Below are positions 10,691-58,302 of a DNA stretch of 64,000 nt, piece by piece; position 1 is the stretch's first letter; every line of letters starts with the position of its first letter. Below the pieces are notes generated by a model. That model was not told where the DNA came from. It saw only the letters and a program-made list of their open reading frames with translations, and did no database searches. Both the position numbers and the translations under genes were made by a program. The DNA comes from Bacillus sp. 491mf (GTDB taxonomy: Bacteria; Bacillota; Bacilli; Bacillales; Bacillaceae_G): NCBI RefSeq assembly GCF_900112415.1, contig NZ_FOLV01000009.1:62001-126000 (forward strand), written 5' to 3'.

Positions 10691-10828
10691 ACCTTCCTCT
10701 CTCAATGCGCTTACGAGGTTAGCTGTCGGACTCGGAATGTGAGAGTATCCCTACTAATAAGATTCGCCCCAAGTGGCATATGCCACAGAAGTGGTTTCCC
10801 CGCTCCGAAATTTGGATTCAGCAAAAGG
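10691..10828 (-). promoter_or_regulatory. ydaO/yuaA-type cyclic di-AMP riboswitch
   Basis: Read on the minus strand, the segment contains the conserved ydaO blocks in order: TTTTGCTGAATCC, GGGGAAACCACTT, TTGGGGCGAATC, AGTAGGGATACTC, TCCGACAGCTAACCTCGTAAGCG-type core (split here by my reading) and GAGAGGAAGG. These match the pattern of the class known to bind c-di-AMP and usually turn expression off. Between aptamer and gene are a GAGGAA/TTCCTC hairpin and a TAACAATAT/ATATTGTTA hairpin. Neither has a clean U-run directly after it, so the mode of control is unclear. The downstream gene is the 47-aa ORF. Confidence 0.93.
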
Positions 10829-10869
10829 TTATATAAATAAAATTAACATATTTATCCAAGTTAATCAAT

Positions 10870-12663: not shown

Positions 12664-12679
12664 AAGGGGAAATTAAAGA

Positions 12680-12911
12680 AAAAGCGATGAAAGAGAAGAG
12701 TACATATTTGGAACTTCGCAGAGAACTGATGGTTGGTGGGAATCAGTAAGGGGAAAATATGGAATGGGCTCTGGAGCTGCAAGCCGAATTGAGTAGGATT
12801 TGACGGTTGTTTCGACGTTATTCGAATCATAAAGAGAACTATGAATTTGTAGTTAATAAAGGTGGTACCGCGGGAGTCCCTCGTCCTTTTTAGGATTGAG
12901 GGGCTTTTTTA
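12680..12911 (+). promoter_or_regulatory. T-box leader (tRNA-Trp type)
   Basis: The conserved T-box core AAAGGTGGTACCGCG lies at about 12858-12872 and is followed by a GAGTCCCTCGTCC / GGATTGAGGGGCT terminator with a T-run ending near 12911. The 5' part can form stem I, and a TGG triplet in GAATGGGCTCT at the expected place fits a Trp specifier. Uncharged tRNA-Trp should stabilise the antiterminator and raise trpS expression. Assignment of the specifier by eye is likely but not proven. Confidence 0.92.
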
Positions 12912-27454: not shown

Positions 27455-28753
27455 TTAACGACGTATATATTGTTTGAAAGTTCCATTTTCAATAGAAGCA
27501 AGAGGAATCGTTTGTTCTGTTCCTTCCTTCATATTTCGTAAAACAGCTACATCGTTATTTATCTCTTCTTCACCGATAATAAGTACATACGGAATGTTTT
27601 CTTTATTTGCATAGTTAAGGGCTCGCTTTAGTTTACGATTTGCCAGTTCAAGTTCTATCTTTAAACTTTCGTTTGTTCGCAATGTGTGAGCAATTTTTAG
27701 ACAATTTTCCTGTGTTCCAAGCGGAATAATAAAGATATCGATAGAAGGGGAGACTCGTTCTTTTTGGACAAGAGCGGTATAGATGACATCTAAACCGAAC
27801 GAGATTCCAACTGTTGGATAAGATTTATTATCATTTCGAAGTGCACCGATAATGTAATCATAGCGCCCCCCACTACCTATGCTAGAAGTAATACTGCCAT
27901 CTGCTAAAAAAATTTCATAAATCGTTCCAGTATACATTGTGAGTCCTCTTGCAAGAAAAGGAGAGAACGTTGTATTACGTTGAATGCCAAGTGCCACCAA
28001 GTATTGCCTAAGTTCTTGAAGTTCAGTAACTCCTTCTTTAACAAGAGAATTTGGGAACATTTTATCAAATTCAGAAAGTGGCATAGACATACATGTTTCT
28101 AACGTCTTACATAACATATCAATCGTTTCACTTTGTATTTCTCGATTCATTAAATCATTTCTTACACCGTCAATACCGATTTTCTCAAGTTTATCTACAG
28201 ATAAAATAACATCTTGTAACTGTGATTCAGGGATTTGAATTGCTTGTAACAACCCTGTTAATAGTTTTCGATTATTATATTGAATGGTTACGTCTAAGTT
28301 TAATTTGTTAAAAATGTCAAGAGCCATTACCATTAATTCTGCTTCTGCTAAGATAGATTCAGCGCCAACAATATCGACATCACACTGTACAAACTCTCGA
28401 ACTCTTCCTGGTTTAATTGGGCCATTACGAAATACTTTCCCAATTTCATAACGTTTAAAAGGGAGACGAATTTCTGGATTCATTGCGACGACTTTTGCAA
28501 AGGGAATGGTTAAATCATAACGCAATGCAAGTTCACGATTCCCTTGATCTTGAAGCGTGTACATCTCCTTTAAAATTTCAGATCCTCCCCCGTATTTATA
28601 AGCCATCAAATCATACATGTTCAAAATAGGTGTTTCTAGCGGTTTGCAGCCATAGGCCTCAAATATTTCTTCACAAGTCCGTTTAATTGTATTGCGCAGC
28701 ATTTGTTCTTCTGGTAAATAGTCTTTTGTCCCTTTTACATTTTGCAAGTTCAT
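27455..28753 (-). CDS. hisS: Histidyl-tRNA synthetase (probable paralogue)
   Basis: A 432-aa class II synthetase. Motif 1 region starts at KGTKDYLPEEQ, motif 2 contains FRNGPIKPGRVREFVQCDVD, and the His-specific LARGLTMYTGTIYEI and motif 3 region GSGGRYDYIIGAL are present, followed by the C-terminal anticodon domain. The housekeeping hisS of Bacillus lies beside aspS; no aspS is here, so this is probably a second, regulated copy. The ATG at 28753 has AAGGAG 8 bases upstream. The leader carries a His-codon peptide and a terminator, which indicates attenuation. Confidence 0.92.
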   Translation of the reverse strand: MNLQNVKGTKDYLPEEQMLRNTIKRTCEEIFEAYGCKPLETPILNMYDLMAYKYGGGSEILKEMYTLQDQGNRELALRYDLTIPFAKVVAMNPEIRLPFKRYEIGKVFRNGPIKPGRVREFVQCDVDIVGAESILAEAELMVMALDIFNKLNLDVTIQYNNRKLLTGLLQAIQIPESQLQDVILSVDKLEKIGIDGVRNDLMNREIQSETIDMLCKTLETCMSMPLSEFDKMFPNSLVKEGVTELQELRQYLVALGIQRNTTFSPFLARGLTMYTGTIYEIFLADGSITSSIGSGGRYDYIIGALRNDNKSYPTVGISFGLDVIYTALVQKERVSPSIDIFIIPLGTQENCLKIAHTLRTNESLKIELELANRKLKRALNYANKENIPYVLIIGEEEINNDVAVLRNMKEGTEQTIPLASIENGTFKQYIRR

Positions 28754-28775
28754 ATTTATCACTCCTTTTTAAAAT

Positions 28776-28884
28776 AAAAAAAGCTATGCAGGTATGAAAA
28801 TACCCACATAGCTTTATAATCGCTTCGTGGGTAAACAGGAATAGCCCTGTACCCACGAAGAAAAAATTTCTTCGGATACAAGGC
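28776..28884 (-). promoter_or_regulatory. hisS attenuator: alternative hairpins and terminator
   Basis: The terminator is AAAGCTATG / CATAGCTTT (28780-28815) with an inner GGTAT/ATACC stem and a T7 run. Upstream on the transcript is a strong hairpin, CTTCGTGGGTA / TACCCACGAAG (28823-28860). Its 5' arm can instead pair with a preceding CGAAGAAA (TTTCTTCG at 28867-28874 on plus). Its 3' arm can pair with the terminator arm (GTGGGTA 28827-28833 with TACCCAC 28801-28807). The folds exclude each other. Confidence 0.75.
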
Positions 28885-28885
28885 T

Positions 28886-28930
28886 TTATGTATGATGATG
28901 AAGTTGGAAAGAACAATCTATTCTAAACAT
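28886..28930 (-). CDS. His leader peptide of hisS
   Basis: A 14-codon ORF, MFRIDCSFQLHHHT, with a good ribosome site (AGGAGAG, 7 bases before ATG). It has three consecutive CAT His codons just before the stop. It begins about 20 bases after the inferred transcription start and ends just upstream of the alternative hairpins. This is the classic layout of a ribosome-stalling attenuator that senses charged tRNA-His. Confidence 0.85.
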   Translation of the reverse strand: MFRIDCSFQLHHHT

Positions 28931-28958
28931 AAGCAATCTCTCCTATAGATTTTTAAGT

Positions 28959-28987
28959 AGTATACTACGAATTATTGGAATTATCAA
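28959..28987 (-). promoter_or_regulatory. Sigma-A promoter of the hisS leader
   Basis: TTGATA (plus 28982-28987) and TATACT (plus 28959-28964) on the minus strand are separated by exactly 17 bases. Transcription would start near 28952, just ahead of the leader peptide. Confidence 0.85.
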
Positions 28988-29217
28988 TTTTTATTCCATG
29001 CCTTATTAGTTTAGGGGGAAATGAATTAATTCCGATCTTATTAAAGGAATTTGCAAAAACGGAAGCACCAAAAGGATTTATATTTTCAATAATCCCTCCA
29101 TTTCTTATTGTTATTTCTGTTTCTATTAGTATAATTATTGCGATTTTTTCCGGACTAAGGCCGGCAATAAAAGCAACGAATATTAATGTGTTATCAGCAA
29201 TTCGCCGAGAAATGTAA
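28975..29217 (+). pseudogene. C-terminal remnant of an FtsX-type ABC permease
   Basis: An open frame of 80 codons with no ribosome site. The end, IFSGLRPAIKATNINVLSAIRREM, is the typical C-terminus of MacB/FtsX-type permeases, where the last helix is followed by RPAxxAxxxxxxxAIR. Everything N-terminal is missing and no ATPase gene is near. The hisS promoter overlaps its left edge on the other strand. Confidence 0.75.
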
Positions 29218-29218
29218 A

Positions 29219-29252
29219 CAAAACCTGTCTCATCTATTGAGACAGGTTTTGT
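29219..29252. terminator. Intrinsic terminator
   Basis: AAAACCTGTCTCA / TGAGACAGGTTTT stem with a short loop; A- and T-rich flanks allow function in both directions. Confidence 0.88.
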
Positions 29253-29725
29253 TATGAAGTAATGGAAGTAGGTGTTGCGTTACTAATTTTGATTAGGTCG
29301 GCGCCGTTCATAAAAATTTGTAATCCTCTTTTTCCAGCACTAATGCTAATTGGGTCTAAATTTGCAGCAGATTCGTCAATAAAGAGTGGATAAATTTTTT
29401 TCATGCCAAGTGGTGAAACACCGCCGCGTATGTATCCTGTTAATCCAAGTATTTCTTTCATTGCAACCATTTCAACTTTTTTATTTTTACTTGCAGATGC
29501 TAACGCTTTTAAATTAAGCTCTTTATGCGAAGGGATACAAGCCATAATTACCCCGGTTTTATCGCCGCGAAGGACGAGTGTTTTAAAGACCTGTTCTAAT
29601 TGCAAATGAACTTGCTCAGCGACATGTTTTGCATCTAAGTTTTCTTCATCCCATTCATATTCGTGAACTGTATATGCAATTTTGTGCTTATCTAAAAAAC
29701 GACAAGCATTTGTTTTACTACTCAT
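29252..29725 (-). CDS. YbaK/EbsC-type aminoacyl-tRNA deacylase
   Basis: A 157-aa protein with the YbaK fold: NACRFLDKHKIAYTVHEYEWDEE at the start, then VFKTLVLRGDKTGVIMACIPSHKELNLKALA with the conserved Lys, and GYIRGGVSPLGMKKIYPLFID. Such proteins hydrolyse mischarged Cys-tRNA-Pro (family knowledge). The ATG at 29725 has AAGGAAG 9 bases upstream; the longer frame to 29908 overlaps the divergent gene and has no site. It is divergent from the RraA-like gene. Confidence 0.88.
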   Translation of the reverse strand: MSSKTNACRFLDKHKIAYTVHEYEWDEENLDAKHVAEQVHLQLEQVFKTLVLRGDKTGVIMACIPSHKELNLKALASASKNKKVEMVAMKEILGLTGYIRGGVSPLGMKKIYPLFIDESAANLDPISISAGKRGLQIFMNGADLIKISNATPTSITS

Positions 29726-30971: not shown

Positions 30972-30992
30972 AAAAGATAAAGTGAATATTTT

Positions 30993-31132
30993 CTTATCCA
31001 GAGAGGTGGAGGGACTGGCCCAATGAAACCCAGCAACCGCGATGCAGGTGCTAATTCCAGCAGAACAGTTTTGTTCTGAAAGATAAGAAGGAAGAGATAT
31101 AATCCGCTTCTTCTTATCGAAGAGGTTTTTTT
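30993..31132 (+). promoter_or_regulatory. SAM-I (S-box) riboswitch with terminator
   Basis: The P1 arms CTTATC (30993-) and GATAAG (31082-31087) bracket the S-box core: AGAGAGGTGGAGGGACTGG, CCCAATGAAACC, CAGCAACC and GGTGCTAATTCCAGCAG. A 7-bp CTTCTTC / GAAGAGG hairpin with a T7 run at 31107-31132 is the expression platform. SAM binding should terminate transcription. The controlled gene is a small unknown ORF. Confidence 0.95.
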
Positions 31133-58076: not shown

Positions 58077-58107
58077 TTTCAAAAATAGCCACCCCATCAT
58101 ACCTTCC

Positions 58108-58302
58108 GTTAAGATAGCGCCCCACGTTTACACGGTAATTTTGTAAACGTGACAGTTCTGTTCCTATTCGAAAACAGCCCCAGCATATACTTCCAGAGAA
58201 GAAGTATAAACTTCGGCAGCTTTTCCTGTTATCTAGAGTTATTGACGTTCTCTGTGTCTCGTCTAGATTACTAATAAAAGCCGCAACCTCTACCTCATCG
58301 GA
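58108..58302 (-). promoter_or_regulatory. Lysine riboswitch (L-box)
   Basis: On the minus strand: GATGAGGTAGAGGTTGCGGC, ATTAGTAATCTAGA, GGAAAAGCTGCCGAAG, TATGCTGGGGCTGTTTTCG, CAGAACTGTC and GTGGGGCGCTATCTT are present in L-box order. Lysine binding should favour the terminator at 58045-58076 and turn off the permease. Confidence 0.95.

What the first reader, a model, noticed from the sequence alone, without database searches (positions are those of the whole stretch)
28776..28990. His-codon leader peptide attenuator before a Bacillus hisS paralogue
Between a 17-bp-spaced promoter and hisS lies MFRIDCSFQLHHHT with a good ribosome site and three consecutive His codons. Three mutually exclusive hairpins and a T7 terminator follow. 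Firmicute synthetase genes are usually controlled by T-boxes; no T-box core is present here. A ribosome finishing at the stop codon would cover CGAAGAAA, let the 28823-28860 hairpin form and leave the terminator free. A ribosome stalled at His would leave CGAAGAAA free to disrupt that hairpin, allowing TACCCAC:GTGGGTA to block the terminator. The polarity is inference; the 7-bp antiterminator is weak.
Basis: partly seen in the sequence, partly recalled or inferred. Interest (0 to 1): 0.82.

Follow-up and report, generated by a model that had tools for sequence, protein, structure and literature searches.

The report
Histidine-sensing leader switch before hisS
A tiny peptide gene with three histidine codons in a row probably lets the ribosome sense a shortage of charged histidine tRNA and decide whether the histidine-tRNA ligase gene behind it is transcribed; such switches were already predicted for this gene, but the same layout also turns up in an RNA class now listed as an unsolved riboswitch candidate.

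Summary
Confirmed. On the minus strand, a second hisS gene (NF009085 type) is preceded by a short ORF, MFRIDCSFQLHHHT, with a good ribosome site, then five pairing segments ending in a terminator. A His-rich leader ORF was found at 96 of 98 hisS2 loci examined, window included. In 35 of these (type I, the window's kind) segments pair as 1:2 plus 3:4, or 2:3 plus 4:5. Stalling at the His codons should allow 1:2 and 3:4 (read-through); finishing at the stop should give 2:3 and the terminator. The other 61 (type II) keep peptide, first hairpin and terminator, but no antiterminator was found; this is unexplained.

A His leader peptide before this gene in bacilli was predicted in 2010 (PMC2965389), so the core is not new. 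What I did not find in print: the orphan riboswitch candidate RF04312 ('trpB motif') has the same layout. 39 of 39 RF04312-like loci have a short ORF with a ribosome site just upstream, 35 with His, Trp, Tyr or Phe runs or WQ (controls 495 and 62 of 2802), and 38 of 39 have a segment 1. The window itself scores below that family's threshold. No experiment was done.

The parts
28959..28987 (-). promoter-like TTGATA-17-TATACT
   Evidence: consensus match only
28938..28944 (-). ribosome site AGGAGAG of the leader ORF, 7 nt before ATG
   Evidence: sequence
28886..28930 (-). leader ORF MFRIDCSFQLHHHT*
   Evidence: counterpart in 95 of 97 other hisS2 loci
28892..28900 (-). CAT CAT CAT, the sensing His codons
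   Evidence: synonymous CAC in other loci
28867..28885 (-). segment 1, its first part covered by a ribosome at the stop codon
28843..28863 (-). segment 2, pairs with 1 (19 pairs) or with 3
28823..28860 (-). hairpin 2:3 (anti-antiterminator)
   Evidence: over 22 distinct type I rows 8 of 16 pairs have double changes
28822..28833 (-). segment 3, pairs with 2 or with 4
28801..28812 (-). segment 4; 3:4 is the antiterminator (11 pairs, duplex -17 kcal/mol)
28776..28815 (-). terminator hairpin 4:5 (28815-28780), its last pairs overlapping the T7 run (28782-28776)
28762..28767 (-). ribosome site AAGGAG of hisS
   Evidence: sequence
27455..28753 (-). hisS2, histidine--tRNA ligase of NF009085/PRK12420 type; ATG at 28753 preferred (the ORF list starts at GTG 28762)
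   Evidence: start by inspection

Best explanation
A ribosome-mediated transcription attenuator that senses charged tRNA-His. Shown by sequence and comparison: a leader ORF with tandem His codons and five segments that can form 1:2 plus 3:4, or 2:3 plus 4:5. Inferred: when tRNA-His is uncharged the ribosome stalls at the first His codon, segment 1 lies just beyond its edge, 1:2 traps segment 2, 3 stays free and pairs with 4, and hisS2 is transcribed. When His is plentiful the ribosome reaches the stop and covers the first part of segment 1, 2:3 forms before 4 is made, the terminator 4:5 forms, and transcription stops. Because 1:2 also forms when no ribosome is present, the switch should be ON without translation, unlike E. 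coli trp/his leaders (recalled).
For: Leader ORF ending in a His run at 96 of 98 loci. HHH ORF with ribosome site in 67 of 71 hisS2 upstream stretches, against 0 of 71 on their reverse strand, 0 of 9 canonical hisS and 0 of 19 hisZ upstreams. Antiterminator duplex beyond shuffles (fraction at most 0.05) in 27 of 35 type I leaders, mean -21 kcal/mol. Segments 2, 3, 4 and 5 vary in concert, 24 distinct rows among 35, L004 and L012 fitting poorly. Before segment 4 is made, segment 3 of the window is 0.41 paired with a ribosome at His1 and 0.82 with one at the stop. Probability that the terminator's 5' arm is held upstream falls from a mean of 0.70 (His1) to 0.40 (stop+13) and 0.34 (stop+16) over 35 type I leaders. 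Canonical hisS in the same genomes uses a T-box (13 of 18 loci); 20 hisS2 loci match no Rfam family at gathering score.
Against: In the window the equilibrium switch needs a ribosome footprint beyond the usual edge (0.54 at His1, 0.54 at stop+13, 0.07 at stop+16), so the polarity leans on folding order. Segment 3 is freer in the stalled state in 26 of 35 type I leaders (stop+13) or 25 of 35 (stop+16), not all. In L008, L012, L086, L162 and L172 the fold of the first segments did not return a long 1:2 helix. 8 of 35 type I antiterminators do not beat shuffles, and 61 of 96 leaders have none. In complete leader RNA the terminator dominates at equilibrium in every state for the window (0.95). B. 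subtilis RNA polymerase is said to outrun ribosomes (PMC9226507 passage), which would need a pause here. No close relatives and no expression data.
Confidence: 0.85

Rival explanations
1. A ligand-binding riboswitch: the tandem hairpins bind histidine or another small molecule and the short ORF is incidental. RF04312, which has the same tandem hairpins, is filed as a strong riboswitch candidate.
For: PMC11109978 (passages) lists RF04312 as a strong riboswitch candidate; the window matches that model end to end at 29 bits, E 0.021-0.038.
Against: The score is below the gathering score of 59. Short ORFs with His/Trp/Tyr/Phe runs or WQ stand upstream of 35 of 39 RF04312-like loci against 62 of 2802 control places. 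Helix sequences drift and I noticed no conserved pocket.
Confidence: 0.04
2. A tRNA-binding T-box or a degenerate descendant of one.
For: Canonical hisS in these genomes uses T-boxes (13 of 18 loci).
Against: No T-box match in the window leader or in 20 hisS2 loci.
Confidence: 0.02
3. The stalled ribosome acts after transcription, by protecting the 5' end of the mRNA or by changing translation, and the terminator is constitutive.
For: Type II leaders (61 of 96) keep peptide, hairpin 1:2 and terminator but no antiterminator, so something other than alternative pairing may act there.
Against: In the window and most other type I leaders an antiterminator that competes with the terminator is present and varies in concert.
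Confidence: 0.06

Closest known systems
His leader peptide predicted before hisS* and hisZ of bacilli (Naville and Gautheret 2010, PMC2965389, section 10 read whole, passages elsewhere)
   Same: Same gene paralogue, short ORF with a stretch of His codons, attenuator with terminator.
   Different: Section 10 gives no alternative-helix model and describes it for bacilli; here it is also in Brevibacillus, Paenibacillus, Clostridia and a Sporomusaceae record, and in two architectures. Its figure and supplements were not seen.
his-operon attenuators of the B. cereus group, Peptostreptococcaceae and Erysipelotrichales (Ashniev 2022, PMC9413887, section 8 read whole, passages elsewhere)
   Same: His leader peptide with terminator and antiterminator hairpins.
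   Different: Different gene (his operon); 'hisS' does not occur in the main text. Its Additional file 6 was not seen.
Rfam RF04312 'trpB motif' (PMC11109978, passages)
   Same: Hairpin 2:3 plus terminator, segment 3 pairing with the terminator's 5' arm (often through TGG), codon-run ORF and segment 1 just upstream.
   Different: The window scores 29 bits against a gathering score of 59; RF04312 is filed as a riboswitch candidate and its model, as matched here, omits the leader ORF and segment 1.
vmlR leader of B. subtilis (PMC9226507, passages)
   Same: Stalling in a short ORF favours an antiterminator over an anti-antiterminator.
   Different: Responds to antibiotics, not to a codon run; the stall prevents the first hairpin, whereas here it permits it.
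Enterobacterial his leader RF00514 (mechanism recalled)
   Same: Tandem His codons, chain of alternative hairpins.
   Different: No Rfam match; parity differs: the untranslated RNA should terminate there and read through here.

Membership tests
leader-peptide (ribosome-mediated) transcription attenuator | short ORF with ribosome site and tandem codons for the cognate amino acid | tested here: met
   96 of 98 loci, three of them with only two His codons; reverse-strand control 0 of 71
leader-peptide (ribosome-mediated) transcription attenuator | intrinsic terminator before the structural gene | tested here: met
   window; 69 of 69 leaders of the first set gave a terminator-like hairpin before a T-run
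leader-peptide (ribosome-mediated) transcription attenuator | mutually exclusive antiterminator | tested here: met
   met by the window and by 27 of 35 type I leaders beyond shuffles; type II 0 of 61
leader-peptide (ribosome-mediated) transcription attenuator | expression depends on leader translation and on charging of tRNA-His | not testable with these tools
   needs an experiment
T-box (RF00230) | match to the covariance model | tested here: not met
His leader RF00514 | match to the covariance model | tested here: not met
   E up to 5: not listed
RF04312 trpB motif | score at or above gathering (59 bits) | tested here: not met
   29 bits
RF04312 trpB motif | layout found here for its loci: tandem hairpins, segment 3 pairing with the terminator arm, segment 1 and a codon-run ORF upstream | tested here: met
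   window; RF04312-like loci. Layout alone is not membership

The most novel reading that the evidence does not exclude
The window's leader is one of a large, modular Bacillota class of five-segment leader-peptide attenuators that are on by default: one scaffold, with the codon run exchanged to suit the gene (His for hisS2, hisS and hisZ; Trp-Gln-x-Trp for the TrpX transporter; Tyr runs for sodium symporters; Phe/Tyr/Trp-rich ORFs for other carriers). The orphan riboswitch candidate RF04312 'trpB motif', with more than 900 representatives, is the 3' part of these attenuators and not a riboswitch. A second form before hisS2 (type II) has lost the antiterminator and must sense the stall in another way.
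Probability: 0.7. Interest if true: 0.72.

Novelty: new member of a known kind. Interest (0 to 1): 0.55.

Why it matters
Bacillota are thought to rely largely on T-boxes and riboswitches for amino-acid genes (general knowledge), and B. subtilis is described as transcribing ahead of its ribosomes (PMC9226507 passage). A widely conserved ribosome-read switch there raises the question of how RNA polymerase waits for the ribosome, and gives many natural leaders with which to test it. If RF04312 is indeed a leader-peptide attenuator, an orphan riboswitch candidate is resolved and need not be screened for ligands. Type II leaders, with sensor and terminator but no antiterminator found, mark a gap in the standard model.

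Tried and rejected
T-box: rejected. Rfam His leader RF00514: not listed. A short 1:2 helix limited to CGAAGAAA: replaced by the 19-pair helix. Equilibrium folding of the full leader with blocked ribosome positions did not separate the states well (means over 69 leaders for the first 10 nt of the terminator arm: 0.31 no ribosome, 0.41 His, 0.43 stop); folding of nascent stretches did so in part. A fixed start of segment 1: by eye it begins about 12-18 nt after the first base of the His run (15 in the window), but a script that counts any outer pair gives 9-16 in 35 type I and 9-15 in 61 type II leaders, so I claim only a rough distance.

Type II antiterminator: searched as pairing of the terminator's 5' or 3' arm with the leader ORF or the post-stop region. 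5' arm with post-stop region 0 of 61, 5' arm with ORF region 0 of 61, 3' arm with post-stop region 10 of 61 (mean z -0.6; A-run with U-run by eye, not convincing), 3' arm with ORF region 2 of 61. A mini-ORF inside the type II terminator arm was considered by eye and dropped as not conserved.

His leader before hisZ in hisS2 genomes: 0 of 19 (the HHH ORF of L212 has no good ribosome site). Close relatives of the window: none; genome contigs shows no B. cereus-group title among the 80 loci kept of 83, plasmids gave four records at about 56% protein identity, and viral contigs gave nothing. RF04312 in the order of G001: 3 of 249 genomes, all below cut-off; the three loci look like plain terminators by eye.

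Full report
What is there. The window carries, on the minus strand, a histidine--tRNA ligase gene (27455-28753) that scores 726 bits with NCBIfam NF009085 and 360 with TIGR00442, both over their cut-offs, and 157 with hisZ, below its cut-off. It is a distant paralogue of canonical HisS: 25 to 36% identical in the nine canonical loci that gave a tblastn hit, of 18 tried. Upstream lie a promoter-like pair of hexamers, a ribosome site, the 14-codon ORF MFRIDCSFQLHHHT and a structured stretch that ends in a 16-pair terminator with T7. The leader folds at z -6.0 against shuffles.

Conservation of the leader ORF. I examined 98 hisS2 loci: the window, 8 of the 80 loci, two plasmid loci, 60 of the 61 matches (the repeat of L003 left out; further DNA), and 27 of the 29 matches (repeats of L001 and L005 left out). 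A short ORF with a His run near its end was found by script in 69 of the first 71, by eye in one more (L086, whose leader lies about 500 nt further upstream than usual), and in 26 of the 27: 96 of 98. Three of the 96 have only two His codons (L086, L101, L142). The misses are L016, where hisS seems to follow directly on another gene (by eye), and L166, which keeps a terminator but shows no peptide. Some rows are not independent: L150 has the same leader as L002, and L141 and L143 come from one genome. A scan of all 80 loci, mostly archaea and other phyla, gave 8 with an HHH ORF: seven Bacillota hisS2 loci and L022, whose ORF has a poor ribosome site and looks like chance. With HHH and a ribosome site required, 67 of 71 upstream stretches pass, against 0 of 71 on their reverse strands, 0 of 9 canonical hisS and 0 of 19 hisZ. 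His codons vary synonymously (223 CAT, 62 CAC, 3 other codons from the two-His leaders), and the stop lies 12 or 15 nt after the first His codon in 86 of 96.

Two architectures. In 35 leaders (type I, the window among them) five segments follow. Segment 1 begins 15 nt after the first base of the His run in the window, and by eye about 12-18 nt after it elsewhere; counting any outer pair a script gives 9-16. A ribosome with that codon in its A site ends near 13 nt (general knowledge), so segment 1 is free or nearly so. In several Clostridia, segment 1 lies inside the ORF (by eye). The antiterminator 3:4 beats shuffles (fraction at most 0.05) in 27 of 35, with a mean of -21 kcal/mol. Segments 2, 3, 4 and 5 change together: the core of segment 3 reads TACCCAC in the window, TACCTGC in L008, TACCTAC in L162 and TGTCTAC in L167, with matching changes in its partners; L004 and L012 do not fit this table well. 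On an alignment of 30 of the 35 (L004, L005, L012, L169 and L150 dropped; 22 distinct rows), helix 2:3 has 95% standard pairs and 8 of 16 pairs with double changes. In L008, L012, L086, L162 and L172 a fold of the first segments did not return a long 1:2 helix. The other 61 leaders (type II) have the same peptide ending and a conserved post-stop hairpin 1:2 (10 pairs, 99.3% standard, 5 with double changes over 60 distinct rows), then the terminator directly. No antiterminator partner was found (0 of 61; other partners). If anything, pairing of the terminator arm rises when the ribosome is at the stop (mean 0.12 to 0.30), the wrong direction. I cannot explain type II.

Polarity. In the window, with the ribosome at His1, the best nascent fold is 1:2 plus 3:4. 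With the ribosome at the stop, hairpin 2:3 is the best fold before segment 4 exists, and the residues of segment 3 are 0.82 paired against 0.41. The equilibrium value once segment 4 exists depends on the footprint (0.54 at stop+13, 0.07 at stop+16). Over type I the mean probability that the terminator arm is held upstream is 0.70 at His1, 0.40 at stop+13 and 0.34 at stop+16, but by the segment 3 measure 26 of 35 (stop+13) or 25 of 35 (stop+16) agree. So the polarity is likely, not shown. With no ribosome the window's nascent RNA folds as 1:2 plus 3:4, so lack of translation should give read-through. This differs from the enterobacterial leaders as I recall them.

Division of labour. In 20 hisS2 genomes chosen for a check, the hisS model TIGR00442 rings in all 20, mostly three times (hisS2, canonical hisS and, below cut-off, hisZ). 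Of the 18 canonical hisS loci returned, 13 carry a T-box; 20 hisS2 loci match no Rfam family at gathering score. The plasmid copies in Planococcus and Lysinibacillus also carry the leader.

Link to RF04312. The window's 2:3 hairpin and terminator match the Rfam 'trpB motif' end to end, at 29 bits against a gathering score of 59; five other hisS2 loci gave no match at E up to 0.05. Its authors call it a strong riboswitch candidate with more than 900 representatives, note an apparent antiterminator in its first stem and an amino-acid-type ABC transporter as commonest gene, and say that a classic attenuator cannot be ruled out (PMC11109978, passages). I searched for it in 249 genomes of the order of G001 (3 with weak hits), 148 of the order of G003 (21 with hits, all below cut-off) and 398 of the class of G001 (12 with hits, 10 over the cut-off). 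The last two give 39 loci, some of them near-identical (the L230 group). All 39 have an ORF of 8-45 codons with a ribosome site ending within -60 to +12 of the motif, against 495 of 2802 control places. 35 of 39 carry a run of His, Trp, Tyr or Phe codons or WQ, against 62 of 2802. All 11 loci over the cut-off do, 10 of them as WQxW. The stretch between ORF and motif is complementary to segment 2 beyond shuffles in 38 of 39, and the antiterminator beats shuffles in 25 of the 38 that could be tested. Downstream genes of nine loci were tested: WQxW before TrpX, a tryptophan transporter protein (NF041285, over its cut-off); His runs before a hisS over cut-off, a hisS just below it and a hisZ-like gene below it (the proteins given were incomplete); Tyr runs before two sodium symporters over cut-off and an NhaC-like gene below it; aromatic-rich ORFs before a branched-chain carrier and a permease. 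The match of codon to substrate for the last groups is not proven. 'trpB motif' occurs in one paper of the library. That RF04312 is a leader-peptide attenuator is therefore, as far as searches 79, 90 and 91 reach, not in print.

What is known already. Naville and Gautheret (2010, PMC2965389, section 10 read whole) predicted a His leader peptide before hisS* and hisZ in bacilli. Ashniev and others (2022, PMC9413887, section 8 read whole) predicted His attenuators before his operons in the B. cereus group and other lineages. Korolev and others (PMC4833913, passage) mention tRNA-His-dependent regulation upstream of hisZ in the B. cereus group and C. difficile. S. aureus ilvD has a Leu leader (PMC5794164, passages). 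B. subtilis vmlR shows ribosome stalling with antitermination (PMC9226507, passages). The window's element is thus a member of a kind already predicted. Not seen by me in print are the five-segment anatomy of the hisS2 leader, its spread beyond bacilli, the second architecture and the RF04312 link; figures and supplements of those papers were not seen.

Limits. No relative closer than 61% in HisS2 could be compared; genomes are mostly unnamed; thresholds (E 1e-125; 1e-110) leave out more distant hisS2; all mechanism is inference from sequence and folding.

Noticed in passing
RF04312-like loci L227-L265: The Rfam 'trpB motif' (riboswitch candidate) is preceded by short ORFs, mostly with Trp, His, Tyr or Phe runs, and a segment 1; it looks like a leader-peptide attenuator.
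   Followed up: yes
61 type II hisS2 leaders, e.g. L003, L103, L119: Leader peptide, post-stop hairpin and terminator are conserved but no antiterminator was found; mechanism unexplained.
   Followed up: partly
L084 (Planococcus versutus plasmid pPS15-1), L085 (Lysinibacillus fusiformis plasmid pMGMM7): hisS2 with its type II leader on plasmids. A neighbourhood like that of L085 is in two records labelled Stenotrophomonas rhizophila (CP031730, CP065518), with the gene unannotated; perhaps mislabelled (L223).
   Followed up: partly
L141 and L143 (genome G393): Two hisS2 copies in one genome, each with its own leader.
   Followed up: no
L166: hisS2 that keeps a terminator but shows no leader peptide.
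   Followed up: no
window 12678-12891 +: T-box before an ORF that looks like a tryptophan--tRNA ligase (by eye).
   Followed up: no
window 30991-31089 +, 58107-58300 -, 10692-10833 -: SAM, lysine and c-di-AMP riboswitches.
   Followed up: no
window 29252-29725 -: YbaK/EbsC Cys-tRNA(Pro) deacylase near hisS2.
   Followed up: no
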